Shown here piece after piece: positions 20,859 to 38,982 of a stretch of DNA of 39,144 nt. The stretch's first letter is position 1; each line of letters opens with the position of its first letter. A program made the position numbers and the translations under genes. The notes under the pieces were generated by a model, which searched no databases, was not told where the DNA came from, and saw only the letters and a program-made list of their open reading frames with translations. Origin of the DNA: Microcaldota archaeon (GTDB lineage: Archaea; Micrarchaeota; Micrarchaeia; Micrarchaeales; CABMGC01); NCBI GenBank assembly GCA_021791245.1, contig JAJYWY010000015.1:1-39144 (forward strand), in the 5' to 3' direction.

Positions 20859-21137
20859 TTATCTTATTTTATATATGGAATGGTTTTCCAGCATGCTTAC
20901 TTTGTTTCCACAAATTTTCGATAAGTTTGTAAGCGCTTCCTTGTTCTTTTCCTTGCAAAACACCACGAAGCCAAACTTGCCACTTGTTAATCTTACTTCA
21001 GATACTCCTTTGCATTGTGCAAGTTGCATTGCTATCTTGCCAGAGTTCTTGTTTGTTTCAGGCTCTATTAAGAATAGAGCTCCACCAGAAGATCTCATCG
21101 ACGCATCGTTTGCCGCTTTTCTCATATTTCCTGCCAT
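20859..21137 (-). CDS. small protein of unknown function, possible RAM-like ligand domain
   Basis: The 92-residue protein contains ALFLIEPETNKNSGKIAMQLAQCKGVSEVRLTSG-like segments and FGFVVFCKEKNKEALTNL, a beta-alpha-beta pattern seen in the ligand-binding domain of Lrp/AsnC-type regulators. That match is weak. I chose ATG 21137 because GGTGGGAAA precedes it and the TATA box TTTTTATATT (21199-21208) puts the transcript start near 21177. The upstream ATG at 21191 would lie outside the mRNA and adds 18 odd aromatic residues. It is convergent and end-to-end with the DUF99 gene. Confidence 0.55.
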   Translation of the reverse strand: MAGNMRKAANDASMRSSGGALFLIEPETNKNSGKIAMQLAQCKGVSEVRLTSGKFGFVVFCKEKNKEALTNLSKICGNKVSMLENHSIYKIR

Positions 21138-21213
21138 TTTCCCACCAAACCAATATGAAGCAGTGAAAGCCCAAATGCAAAATGCAGACATAATTGCAAA
21201 TATAAAAAGGCGT

Positions 21214-21310
21214 AAAAAGTTAAGGCGCGCAGGAATTGGGGATTAGGGAACCAAAAAAGAACTACGCGCCTTAAGATTACATGCCCATCCAATGAATGAA
21301 TCCATTGGAC
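21214..21310 (-). ncRNA. candidate small RNA, about 95 nt
   Basis: On the minus strand, TTTATATAA (21329-21337) predicts a transcript start near 21307-21310. There a hairpin begins: TCCAATG pairs with CATTGGA (21309-21303 with 21294-21288) around 8 nt. A second stem follows, TTAAGGCGCG (21274-21265) with CGCGCCTTAA (21229-21220), 10 perfect pairs around 35 nt, then a run of five T (21218-21214) as a terminator. No open frame of note lies inside. Start, structure and end all fit a short independent RNA. No known archaeal RNA family was recognised; an H/ACA guide is unlikely because no ACA follows the stem. Confidence 0.45.
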
Positions 21311-21475
21311 AAATACTTTATTTTTGCTTTATATAAATAAATGAGTATAAAAATAATTCCAAAAAAGGAATCAAATCCCTAAAATTATGCACACTATTTC
21401 CAGATTCGTTCTAATTTGGGGTGGAATCCGAATTAATTGCAGCAGTTGTAATTTAAGCATTTTCCGATATAAAGC

Positions 21476-21591: not shown

Positions 21592-22857
21592 ATGGCAGAA
21601 AAACCACACTTGAACATAATTTTCATAGGTCATATAGACCATGGAAAGTCAACGACTGTAGGGAGGCTGTTATTCGAGACAAAGGCAGTCTCAGAGCAGG
21701 AGCTCAAGAAGCTGAAAGAGGAAGCAGCCAAGTTCAACAAGCCTACCTTCGAGTTCGCTTTCGTTATGGACCAGCTCAAGGAGGAGAGGGAAAGAGGAAT
21801 TACGATAGACATAATGCACAAGGATTTCCAGACTCCTAAATATTATTTTACTATAATTGATGCACCAGGACACAGAGACTTCGTGAAGAACATGATAACA
21901 GGTGCAAGCCAGGCTGACGCTGCAGTGCTAGTCATATCTGCAAAAGATGGAATACAAGGCCAAACAAGGGAACATGCGTTCCTTGCAAAAGTTCTTGGAA
22001 TAAACCAATTAATAATAGGAGTAAACAAGATGGATGCAATAGGATTCGACAGGGTGAAATTTGAGGAAGTGAAGATGCAGATAAGCACTTTGTTGAAAAA
22101 TGTAGGATATGATGTTAGCAAGATATTGTTTATACCATACTCCGCCTTAGAGGGAGACAACGTAAAGGAAAAATCTCCAAAGATGGAATGGTACTCCGGA
22201 CCAACGCTGCTTGAATCTCTCGACACGCTTATTGTTAATCCCAAGCCTATCGACAAACCACTAAGGCTTCCTATACAGGATGTATACAACGTATCTGGAT
22301 TCGGAACGGTTCCTGTTGGAAAGGTGGAAACAGGGATGATGAAGCTTGGTGAACAGATAATAATAATGCCGAAGGGTATAAAGACAGAGGTAAAGGGAAT
22401 TGAAATGCACCACAAGGCGCTGCAGCAGGCAGAGCCTGGCGACAATGTGGGATTCAACATAAAGGGAGTAGACAAGAAGGATGTTACAAGAGGGGATGTA
22501 GTAGGGCCTGCAGGCAACCCTCCGACAGTTGCAGAGGAGTTTACTGCCCAGATAGTTGTACTGAACCACCCTACGGCAATAGCCCCTGGATACACTCCTG
22601 TCTTCCATCTTCATACTGCCCAGCTTGCAGCAACAATAGTGGAGATAGTGGAGAAGAAGGATCCCAAGACTGGACAAGTCCAGAAGAATCCTGAATTCAT
22701 AAAAAACGGCGACGTTGCAATAGTGAGGATAAAGCCTTCAAGGGCAATATGCGTAGAAAAATATAGCGATTTCCCTCAACTAGGAAGGTTTGCAATAAGG
22801 GACAGCGGCGCTACAGTTGCGGCAGGAGTAGTCCTCGAAGTGAAGAAGAAGGCATAA
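21592..22857 (+). CDS. tuf: translation elongation factor 1-alpha (aEF1A)
   Basis: This GTPase delivers aminoacyl-tRNA to the ribosome. Its 421 residues are full length for archaea. G1 is [11 protein letters not shown], switch region [10 protein letters not shown]3 [13 protein letters not shown]4 GVNKMDA, then beta-barrel domains 2 ([24 protein letters not shown]) and 3 ([26 protein letters not shown]). The Shine-Dalgarno is GGTGA, six bases before the ATG. It is followed after 10 nt by rpsJ, as in the archaeal str-type operon. Here these two genes are separated from L30e-S12-S7-aEF2 by about 8.7 kb. Confidence 0.97.
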
Positions 22858-35421: not shown

Positions 35422-36168
35422 CTATCTCTTTGCAATTTGCCTGAGATCAGCGAGCCTCCCAAAGTCTAGAGTTTCCGCATCGCCTATGCCGAAAGCATGG
35501 AGCGATTCTATGTTTATGCATTTAAGCAGCGGCGACATATCTGAGATATCATCAATGTTTGCATCGACTCCGCTTGCATAGTAGTTCATTGCAGGGAGGA
35601 TAACTATCTTCTTCCTCCTGCCGTAATTTCCGTAAAGTATGCAGCGCACTTTCTCCTTGACACCTAATTTGCTGTATAATGCTATATCCGGATGCACATG
35701 CCCCATTATAAGCGTATCCCATCCATCGCTTTTTGGAATTTCGTCTCCATGCGAGAACAGCATCCTGCCGATCCCATATTCCTCTTCAAATACATGTATC
35801 CCGAGCGCATCCGTTACTCTGGCAACGAAGTTGTCATGGTTGCCTCTTATCAATATGATTTCCTTCACTCCCAAAGCTTTAACATATTCCGCAAACTCCT
35901 TCATCTCGTTGAACTCGTCCAGATCCATAACAGAGAAATCATTCTTTATATCCCCTGTTATTATAAGCTTTTTTGCATCCGTGAGTCCAATGGCTTTTTT
36001 TACTTCTGCCTTTATATTCTCCAGGTTCTTCTTTGGAAGAAAGGCCCCGTTCTTCGATGCCACGCTCTCGTATCCCAGATGCAAATCGGAGCATGCTACC
36101 GCATTTATGCCCTTTATATATATTAGCGGAAGGCCGTCAATGGCTTCTATGTTTTTGTCAAGCATCAT
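35422..36168 (-). CDS. metallophosphoesterase paired with the Lhr-type helicase
   Basis: The 248-residue protein has calcineurin-like motifs: DLHLG (about 28-32), GDIKN, GNHDN, SHGDE and GHVHP, with all metal ligands present. It belongs to the archaeal group often next to Lhr-type helicases. It probably acts on a nucleic-acid or nucleotide phosphodiester; the substrate is not clear. Its start overlaps the end of the helicase gene by 11 nt, showing cotranscription. Confidence 0.87.
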   Translation of the reverse strand: MMLDKNIEAIDGLPLIYIKGINAVACSDLHLGYESVASKNGAFLPKKNLENIKAEVKKAIGLTDAKKLIITGDIKNDFSVMDLDEFNEMKEFAEYVKALGVKEIILIRGNHDNFVARVTDALGIHVFEEEYGIGRMLFSHGDEIPKSDGWDTLIMGHVHPDIALYSKLGVKEKVRCILYGNYGRRKKIVILPAMNYYASGVDANIDDISDMSPLLKCINIESLHAFGIGDAETLDFGRLADLRQIAKR

Positions 36169-38848
36169 CCTGCTCCCTTACCCTTACATTATTGCCTATC
36201 TGCTTCATAACGAGCGCATGAAGCTCCCTTAGCCTCTTCCTTCTATCCGCCATCATGACTACGTCAGCTTCTCCCAATGTTATGAGCATATGGGAGAACG
36301 GCGAAGGTATGTCTGTGCTTATCACCTTATATTTCACTTCGCCATTTTTTATGTCATTCAGAAGGCCCTTGCACCTCTTTATATCCATCACGTCTTCCAG
36401 TATCTCCCTGTATGTTTCCTTTAGCACTGGAAAATCCTCGCCTATGCTTTCAACAGCTTTTATCAATGCGTCAGCATTGAACTGCTGCTTCCTTACGCTT
36501 ATCTTGAATCCCTTGTAATTCTTCAGTATCATGAAACTTCTTGCCGCAGAATGCCTGAACCTCCTTTTTAGCATCTCTGTCCTTCTTATATTCTTTTTTA
36601 TTAGATGGGATATGTCGGCGCCTGATGCGATGTCCATGACCCTTTCCAGGTTCTTCTTGCTCAGCTTCGTATCGCTGTCGGTTATCACTACAAACCCGTT
36701 GTCAGATATGGAAAGCGCAACGTCTACATTGAAGTATTCCCCTATTATCATTGCGATAACCCTTGAAAGGGTATCATTGATCCTCCTTCCGAATAGCGAA
36801 TGGAATATGTAAATATTCCTGTCGTCAGACTGGTTTGCAGTAGCCTCTATGAGTATGAACCTGTCATTAGGTATGTAGCCGCACGAGAGTTTCTGCTCGA
36901 CGAAATAATTTAGTATTGAGATCCTTGCATTCCTGTCTATCGGCATAGACTCAAGCATCCTGCCGGCATCCTTTGAGATTTCAATGTTTTTTCTTCCTAT
37001 CGGGATCGCCTTTCCCTTTATCGATATGCCATTGTCCATTGCCTCCCTAAATCTGCCAATATCAGTTGCAAGTTCGTAAGTAAGGGGCAACTGCTCAGAG
37101 AACCAAGGAGGTATTGTTGGTGATTTTCCGTCAGCCCTCGACACTATGCATCTCATGCCCCTTGCGCTCTCGAACTGATATACCTTCCCTCCGAGTACAA
37201 ATATGTCACCTGGCTTAAGCCTTGATAAGAAATCCTCCTCTATGCTGCCCACTGGCCATTTGTCTTTTGTGTAAACATCGACTGCAACCTCATCAGGTAT
37301 TGTGCCAAGGTTTAGGTAATATATTAGCCGTGCAAGCTTTCCCCTCTTCCCGAACTTCTGCTCTTTCTCGTCATACCATATCTTCCCGTACACTCTTCTG
37401 CTCTCCAAGCCCACATATTTTCCTGCCAGATATTCAAGGGTCCTCATAAAGTCGATCTTGTCAAGAGTGTGGAATGGATAGGCGTTTCTTACCGTATCAA
37501 ATGCAGAATCAACATCCCATACCTTGTTCAGCGACATGCCCATTATGTGCTGCGAGAGCACGTCAAGGCAGTTCTTTGGGGTGCTGAATGAATCTAGATG
37601 GCGTTTTTTTGCGCTGTCAAGCATGACTGCGCATTCTACAAGGTCGTCGCGGTTCAGCACTATTGCTTCCCCCCTGGCAACATCGTTAAAATTGTGGCCG
37701 CTTCTTCCGAACCTCTGCAGCGCGCGCGATACGCTTTTTGGGGATCCAAGCAGAATGACATTGTCTATGGTGCCAATGTCTATTCCAAGCTCGAGGCTTG
37801 TTGAAGACACCACGCATTTGTAATCCCCTTTTTTTAGCATCTTCTCTACTCCAAGCCTCGCCTCGCGTGATAACGACCCATGGTGCGCTGCTATGCTACC
37901 TTCTTCATACTTGAATTTTTTGTAAAGGCTGAACACTGTTCTTTCAGTGCCGCTTCTTGTATTCGTGAATATCAGCGTTGTCCTGTTTTTCTTGACTATA
38001 TTGTTTATTATCCTGTAAACGGAATCCTCTATCCTGCTGTCTGGCGCATTGACTATGTCCTGCATGGGGCACATTGCCACGTATTCCATCTTCTTGTCCC
38101 AGTTTGCATCCACTATGCAGCAATCCCGTTCCTTGCTGCCTTCATACCCAACGAGAAACCTGGCTGCATCCTCAAGTGGGAATAGCGTAGCGCCCAAGCC
38201 TATCCTTATAAATCCATGCCCTATCATCTCGCTTAGCCTCTCAAGCGAAAGCGACAGGTGCACTCCCCTCTTGTTGTTTGCGAGCTCGTGCATCTCATCT
38301 ATTACTACATACCTTAGGTCTTTGAAGCTCTTCGAGAACCTTTCCGAATTTAGCAGTATCGCCAAACTTTCAGGAGTAGTTATAAGTATGTTCGGCGGAT
38401 GTGCGAGCATGCGCTGCCTATCCTTCTGGGTAGTATCTCCAGTCCTTATTCCTATGCCGACCTTCTTAAATCCTTTCATCCCTTGCATCGAGTATATTTC
38501 ATCCAGCGGAACGCTGAGATTTCTGTATATATCGTTGTTCAAAGCCCTAAGAGGGGATACATAAATGCAGTACACCTTCTCTTCAAGGGCATCTTTCCGG
38601 GCTTCATCGACAAGGTCGCTTATTATTGCTATAAATGCCGATAATGTCTTTCCGCTCCCGGTTGGTGCGGTTATAAGAAGGTTTTTCTTATCTTTTATAA
38701 GCTTCAGGGAATATCTCTGCGGAGGTGTAAGGCTTTTGTACTTTCCAGTAAACCACTTACTGACATCCGTATTGAGCCCCGCAAGGCTCTCCTCATCTGA
38801 AAAGTGCTGCTTGCATAGTTCTATCATTATCCGCACCGCGTACTGCAT
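36158..38848 (-). CDS. lhr: Lhr-type superfamily 2 DNA/RNA helicase
   Basis: The 896-residue protein has two RecA-like domains and an Lhr-core: Q-motif-like PPQRYSLKLI, Walker A TAPTGSGKT (about 60), motif Ib ITTPESLAIL, Walker B VIDEMHELANNKRG (DEMH), motif III GLGATLFP, TNTRSGTERTVF, STSLELGIDIG and motif VI QRFGRSGH. A long C-terminal part (winged helix and beta-barrel) follows. Lhr-core helicases of this length are widespread in archaea and act in DNA repair or RNA processing. It is upstream of the overlapping metallophosphoesterase gene. The start is uncertain: ATG 38848 is chosen, TTG 38869 and ATG 38827 are alternatives. Confidence 0.9.
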   Translation of the reverse strand: MQYAVRIMIELCKQHFSDEESLAGLNTDVSKWFTGKYKSLTPPQRYSLKLIKDKKNLLITAPTGSGKTLSAFIAIISDLVDEARKDALEEKVYCIYVSPLRALNNDIYRNLSVPLDEIYSMQGMKGFKKVGIGIRTGDTTQKDRQRMLAHPPNILITTPESLAILLNSERFSKSFKDLRYVVIDEMHELANNKRGVHLSLSLERLSEMIGHGFIRIGLGATLFPLEDAARFLVGYEGSKERDCCIVDANWDKKMEYVAMCPMQDIVNAPDSRIEDSVYRIINNIVKKNRTTLIFTNTRSGTERTVFSLYKKFKYEEGSIAAHHGSLSREARLGVEKMLKKGDYKCVVSSTSLELGIDIGTIDNVILLGSPKSVSRALQRFGRSGHNFNDVARGEAIVLNRDDLVECAVMLDSAKKRHLDSFSTPKNCLDVLSQHIMGMSLNKVWDVDSAFDTVRNAYPFHTLDKIDFMRTLEYLAGKYVGLESRRVYGKIWYDEKEQKFGKRGKLARLIYYLNLGTIPDEVAVDVYTKDKWPVGSIEEDFLSRLKPGDIFVLGGKVYQFESARGMRCIVSRADGKSPTIPPWFSEQLPLTYELATDIGRFREAMDNGISIKGKAIPIGRKNIEISKDAGRMLESMPIDRNARISILNYFVEQKLSCGYIPNDRFILIEATANQSDDRNIYIFHSLFGRRINDTLSRVIAMIIGEYFNVDVALSISDNGFVVITDSDTKLSKKNLERVMDIASGADISHLIKKNIRRTEMLKRRFRHSAARSFMILKNYKGFKISVRKQQFNADALIKAVESIGEDFPVLKETYREILEDVMDIKRCKGLLNDIKNGEVKYKVISTDIPSPFSHMLITLGEADVVMMADRRKRLRELHALVMKQIGNNVRVREQDDA

Positions 38849-38982
38849 TACTTCCTTTGAATGGTACAAATAGCATATTGAATAGAAATAATATTAATAT
38901 AAGACTTCCTATATTTTGGGTTTTGTTGATTGGCCCTGCATTATCAACATTTTTAGGGTTTTATCTGCAACTTAACCGTGCA

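What the first reader, a model, noticed from the sequence alone, without database searches (positions are those of the whole stretch)
21214..21340. Candidate small RNA with own promoter, two stems and poly-T end
TATA spacing, a hairpin at the predicted 5' end, a 10-bp GC-rich stem and a T run all agree on one minus-strand transcript. No known RNA family was recognised.
Basis: partly seen in the sequence, partly recalled or inferred. Interest (0 to 1): 0.6.

Follow-up and report, generated by a model that had tools for sequence, protein, structure and literature searches.

The report
Structured leader RNA before small archaeal gene
In a tiny uncultured archaeon (Micrarchaeota), the spot flagged as a small RNA is a real folded RNA element of a type that recurs, with compensating mutations, in front of genes for very small proteins in related archaea; it is more likely the start of the neighbouring gene's message than a free-standing small RNA.

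Summary
In detail: on the minus strand of a Micrarchaeota contig there is a TATA box (21337-21330), a hairpin at the expected RNA start, the window's only perfect 10-bp inverted repeat with a 3-45 nt loop (21220-21274), and T runs. Rfam has no match. An ORF begins 28 bases downstream on the same strand; it encodes a stand-alone RAM (Lrp/AsnC ligand-binding) protein, probable start 21137. Upstream of its homologues in other genera, hairpins with C-rich loops are over-represented (35/90 on the gene strand, 13/90 reversed, 4/90 shuffled). A covariance model of nine such hairpins shows compensatory changes; in 79 family genomes it finds 14 elements, 5 not used in training, 3 of those 5 before the same kinds of small-protein gene; none in 766 kb of EF-1A neighbourhoods. 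The T run and the EF-1A linkage are not conserved; the linkage to small-protein genes is. Best reading: a structured 5' leader of the RAM gene, probably regulatory, of a family absent from Rfam. A weaker TATA-like site lies between hairpin and gene, so a separate sRNA remains possible. No expression data; the mechanism (C-rich loop bound by a protein, or pairing with Shine-Dalgarno sites) is inferred, and a test for cis-specific pairing was negative.

The parts
21330..21337 (-). TATA box TTTATATA; predicted RNA start near 21306 (TATA centre plus about 27)
   Evidence: Sequence; start site inferred from general archaeal promoter spacing
21287..21310 (-). Hairpin 1, small loop, at the predicted 5' end
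   Evidence: a comparable hairpin precedes hairpin 2 in L188, L028, L209 and L151
21220..21274 (-). Hairpin 2: 10-bp perfect stem, core of the conserved element
   Evidence: covariance model R1 42.3 bits; covariation. The window sequence was in the training set
21233..21261 (-). C-rich loop UUCUUUUUUGGUUCCCUAAUCCCCAAUUC of hairpin 2
   Evidence: C-rich loops on the same strand in relatives
21200..21219 (-). T-rich stretch, possible weak terminator; resembles the motif TTAYGCTTA that follows other leaders; also holds a TATA-like site TTTATATT (21206-21199) that could serve the gene on its own
   Evidence: Sequence; motif counts; terminator not conserved
21243..21305 (-). Optional 20-codon ORF MDSFIGWACNLKARSSFLVP inside the leader, start within a few bases of the predicted RNA start; unlikely to be what is conserved
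   Evidence: Sequence; hairpin lengths in the family fall in all three classes modulo 3
21141..21146 (-). Shine-Dalgarno-like GGTGGG of the RAM gene
20859..21137 (-). Stand-alone RAM (Lrp/AsnC ligand-binding) protein gene, probable start 21137 (ORF open from ATG 21191)

Best explanation
It is the structured 5' leader RNA of the downstream RAM-protein gene, a member of a diverse family of leaders that precede small-protein genes in Micrarchaeota. Shown: TATA box, two hairpins, stem conservation with compensatory changes, C-rich loop on the gene strand, recurrent position upstream of same-strand small-protein genes. Inferred: transcription starts near 21306 and runs into the gene; the folded leader presents an unpaired C-rich loop that a shared partner recognises, either an RNA-binding protein (perhaps one of the encoded small proteins) or G-rich Shine-Dalgarno sites, and so sets how much protein is made. 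Partial termination at the T runs could also release the leader as a short RNA.
For: C-rich-loop hairpins upstream of RAM homologues: 35/90 gene strand, 13/90 reverse, 4/90 shuffled (Fisher p 3e-4 and 1e-8). Nine hairpins from seven genomes: 11 double changes, above 500 of 500 shuffles, signal lost when partners are slid. Model R1: 14 hits in 79 genomes, 5 untrained, 3 of these directly before a RAM remnant or VYAD peptide gene; none in 766 kb of EF-1A neighbourhoods. Structured, C-rich leaders also precede VYAD genes at loci without a RAM gene. One leader pair spans two families, with a compensatory change in the outermost pair (L181, L254). G018 carries several copies with near-identical loops before different genes, which points to a shared partner.
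Against: No transcript seen. A TATA-like site (7 of 8) at 21206-21199 could start the gene's own message. Two of five untrained hits have no small-protein gene directly behind them. Only 8 of 79 family genomes have a window-like hairpin by the model, and the hairpin was not enriched upstream of RAM genes in the sister family (2 of 21 against 4 reversed). A leader's own loop pairs with its Shine-Dalgarno region no better than swapped or shuffled loops. The training hairpins were chosen by me for stem and C runs.
Confidence: 0.5

Rival explanations
1. A free-standing small RNA of about 100 nt that ends at the T runs and acts in trans through its C-rich loop; the gene behind it has its own promoter.
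For: Own TATA box and T runs; stable closed fold; a TATA-like site between hairpin and gene; two model hits without a small-protein gene directly behind; near-identical loops in several loci of G018.
Against: T runs in 2 of 14 members only; recurrent position before same-strand small-protein genes.
Confidence: 0.28
2. The stretch is conserved as a short coding sequence (a leaderless leader peptide), and the hairpin is a by-product.
For: An ORF starts within a few bases of the predicted RNA start in the window; several G018 copies read alike (xRGRILFPTLRCAP); in L165, L178 and L190 an ORF through the leader joins the zinc-finger gene.
Against: Match lengths through the hairpin are 50 to 66 and fall in all three classes modulo 3, so one frame is not kept; the window ORF stops in the loop; the stem changes are compensatory.
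Confidence: 0.09
3. A DNA-level inverted repeat (operator, or remnant of a mobile element), not an RNA.
For: Any inverted repeat folds on both strands; related elements are multi-copy in some genomes (G018).
Against: The loop's C-richness keeps its strand relative to the gene; a TATA box lies upstream of the 5' arm in many members; DNA similarity search finds no second copy in the own genome.
Confidence: 0.08
4. Chance structure in AT-rich intergenic DNA.
For: DNA search of the region finds no clear relative in 60 genomes.
Against: z -5.9; only repeat of its kind in the window; untrained model hits at the same kind of site.
Confidence: 0.05

Closest known systems
Archaeal sRNA162 of Methanosarcina mazei (PMC3510493, title and abstract seen)
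   Same: Archaeal regulatory RNA that acts on both cis- and trans-encoded mRNAs, one of which encodes a transcription factor
   Different: No sequence or family match here; the window element precedes the gene on the same strand and has a C-rich loop on a long stem
Bacterial small RNAs with C-rich loops that pair with Shine-Dalgarno sites (from general knowledge; papers listed, not read)
   Same: Unpaired C-rich loop on a stem, G-rich Shine-Dalgarno sites in the linked genes
   Different: Archaeal, part of an apparent leader, and no cis-specific pairing could be shown
Autoregulatory mRNA leaders such as those of ribosomal protein operons (from general knowledge)
   Same: Structured leader before a gene for a small protein that might bind it
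   Different: Protein is a RAM-domain protein; binding untested
Stand-alone RAM proteins (for example 2zbc, 2e1a, 2cvi)
   Same: The downstream gene product has the same fold and size class
   Different: Divergent, multi-copy in many Micrarchaeota, linked to tiny zinc-finger and VYAD peptides

Membership tests
Any Rfam 15 family | Score at or above the family's gathering cut-off | tested here: not met
   No match for the window or for 19 loci with related leaders
Independent archaeal small RNA | Own promoter | tested here: met
   TATA box 8 of 8 at 21337-21330; by sequence only
Independent archaeal small RNA | Defined 3' end before the next gene | tested here: inconclusive
   T runs in the window, but T5 in 2 of 14 family members; no RNA data
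5' leader RNA | Recurrent position upstream of same-strand genes of related kind | tested here: met
5' leader RNA | Transcript continuous with the gene | not testable with these tools
   No expression data; TATA-like site between hairpin and gene leaves it open
Conserved structured RNA | Compensatory base-pair changes in the stem | tested here: met
   with shuffle and slide controls
Loop acting on its own Shine-Dalgarno site (C-rich-loop type) | Loop pairs better with its own Shine-Dalgarno region than swapped or shuffled loops do | tested here: not met
   own -8.7, swapped -9.7, shuffled -9.8 kcal/mol at the best offset
Stand-alone RAM protein (gene product) | RAM domain alone, without a helix-turn-helix domain | tested here: met
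   the window protein alone matches Pfam only weakly (E 0.02-0.03)

The most novel reading that the evidence does not exclude
A lineage-wide RNA-plus-small-protein system of Micrarchaeota: fast-evolving C-rich leader RNAs, each heading an operon of tiny RAM, zinc-finger and VYAD proteins, acting as a regulon through one shared partner and possibly released to act in trans.
Probability: 0.2. Interest if true: 0.75.

Novelty: new variant of a known kind. Interest (0 to 1): 0.55.

Why it matters
The papers searched gave no structured regulatory RNA of this kind for Micrarchaeota. A recurrent RNA element tied to multi-copy families of tiny proteins in genomes of about 1 Mb would point to an unstudied layer of gene control in these reduced archaea. 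The covariance model and the named loci make it testable in existing transcriptomes.

Tried and rejected
Synteny with EF-1A: no RAM or endonuclease dU gene beside EF-1A in any other fetched EF-1A locus. DNA similarity of the region: only short AT-rich matches. tRNA and tmRNA: none. Rfam at relaxed threshold: chance matches. A split or permuted tRNA was considered because of GGUUC in the loop and dropped for lack of support. Cis-specific pairing of loop and Shine-Dalgarno site: negative. Retrained model R2 across the order: no further hit in the family, two weak hits in the sister family (E 0.006 and 0.075), not counted. C-rich-loop scan in the sister family: not enriched. Viral contigs: one G018 loop string absent; the protein alignment was too diverse for that search.

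Full report
What is there. The window is a contig of a Candidatus Micrarchaeota genome (nearest EF-1A relatives; own genome 0.84 Mb in 42 contigs). On the minus strand, between EF-1A (21592-22857, plus) and a small ORF (ATG at 21191, minus), lie a TATA box at 21337-21330, a hairpin at 21310-21287, a second hairpin at 21274-21220 with a 10-bp perfect stem and a 35-nt loop, and T runs at 21218-21214 and 21208-21204. The minus strand folds far better than its dinucleotide shuffles (z -5.9), and the second hairpin is the only perfect 10-bp inverted repeat with a loop of 3-45 nt in the window. Rfam has no match.

The neighbour. The same-strand ORF P0001 (110 aa from ATG 21191) has a better start at 21137, preceded by GGTGGGAAA, close to where its homologues begin. 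Alone it matches the Pfam Lrp/AsnC ligand-binding domain only weakly (E 0.02-0.03). In its family 30 of 35 members match that domain, a family profile finds Lrp/AsnC and stand-alone RAM structures in the PDB, and an AlphaFold model (mean pLDDT 86.5) matches the same structures. It is a stand-alone RAM protein. The family is found in 120 of 164 genomes of the order, often in several copies, but once in the window's genome. Elsewhere these genes share operon-like clusters with a tiny zinc-finger protein (CW.C...FLWHI) and a tiny peptide ending WRVVYAD. The latter is in 32 of 79 family genomes and absent from the window's.

Is the RNA conserved? Beside EF-1A it is not. Upstream of RAM homologues, wherever they lie, hairpins with a C-rich loop are frequent on the gene strand: 35 of 90, against 13 of 90 on the reverse strand and 4 of 90 after shuffling (Fisher p 3e-4 and 1e-8). 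In 805 kb made of the window and EF-1A neighbourhoods, both strands, a stricter scan finds 23 such hairpins; the window's is the second strongest to fourth strongest by score and the only one with several TATA-like matches upstream (two others have one each). Nine hairpins from seven genomes align on the stem: 96% of pair cells are standard pairs, with 11 double changes, more than in any of 500 shuffles, and the signal is lost when partners are slid. I chose these nine for stem and C runs, so the percentage paired is inflated. The double changes and the next test are firmer.

The covariance model. R1, built from the nine, gives one hit in the own genome, the window itself, which was in training, and 14 hits in 79 family genomes. 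Five are new: G018:C9:19962 before a RAM remnant, G018:C9:19533 and G012:C19:16388 before VYAD-type peptide genes, and G018:C4:40034 and G035:C63:1908 with no such gene directly behind. R1 finds nothing in 766 kb of EF-1A neighbourhoods. R2, retrained on the 14, adds no family hit and two weak ones in the sister family. The covariation result stands on the larger set. G018 holds five copies, several with near-identical loops (UUUUGUUCCCCACC...), before different genes, which suggests one shared partner.

The wider class. Leaders at VYAD loci without a RAM gene, and at many RAM loci, show a related layout: TATA box, G-rich 5' strand, inner hairpins, unpaired C-rich stretches such as CCCAACCCAACCC, a closing C-rich 3' strand, and often TTAYGCTTA behind. 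One pair spans two families: L181 and L254 share an outer stem whose outermost pair changed from G-C to C-G, and the strings AAACCTCTGGAA and AAACCCACCCT. Whether outer-stem leaders and window-like hairpins are one family is open: the models do not join them, and the window-like hairpin is not enriched in the sister family.

Leader or small RNA? The linkage to same-strand small-protein genes favours a 5' leader. The T run, the main argument for an sRNA end, is not a family feature: by reading, a T5 run follows hairpin 2 in 2 of 14 members. Against a leader, a TATA-like TTTATATT at 21206-21199 could start a separate message near 21175, upstream of the RAM start at 21137. A conserved peptide as the cause is unlikely, since hairpin match lengths (50 to 66) fall in all three classes modulo 3, although some leaders are open and read alike within one genome.

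How it may work. The loop is C-rich, and RAM genes often carry an extended Shine-Dalgarno site (GGTGG[GA] in 32 of 89, none of 41 EF-1A genes). My start picker favours GGTG, which biases the first figure. Loop and site are complementary in composition, but a leader's own loop pairs with its site no better than swapped or shuffled loops, so direct cis pairing is not supported. Recognition of the loop by a protein, perhaps one encoded in the operon, is at least as likely. All of this is inference; no expression data were available.

Verdict. A real, conserved structured RNA element, best read as a regulatory 5' leader of a small RAM-protein gene, of a family not in Rfam.

Noticed in passing
151-360, both strands: Another strongly structured stretch (z about -6.4 minus, -4.8 plus), with a C-rich-loop hairpin at 157-200 on the plus strand; no tRNA and no Rfam match. 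It could be an undescribed non-coding RNA.
   Followed up: partly
37751-37860, minus strand: Strong predicted fold (z -6.25) inside the long minus-strand ORF 36158-38869.
   Followed up: no
L165, L178, L190 (genus g24): In these loci the leader hairpins lie inside an ORF that continues into the tiny zinc-finger protein, so RNA structure and coding sequence overlap.
   Followed up: partly
L156, L158, L159, L172, L173, L174 (genome G014): Up to nine similar clusters in one genome: leader, tiny zinc-finger protein, a second small protein, RAM protein. Looks like recent duplication of a cassette.
   Followed up: no
Behind leaders in many loci, for example L008, L151, L169, L186, L227: Motif TTA[TC]GCTTA follows the leader, about ten times more frequent than in background (7 in 39 kb against 28 in 1531 kb of strand). 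Role unknown.
   Followed up: partly
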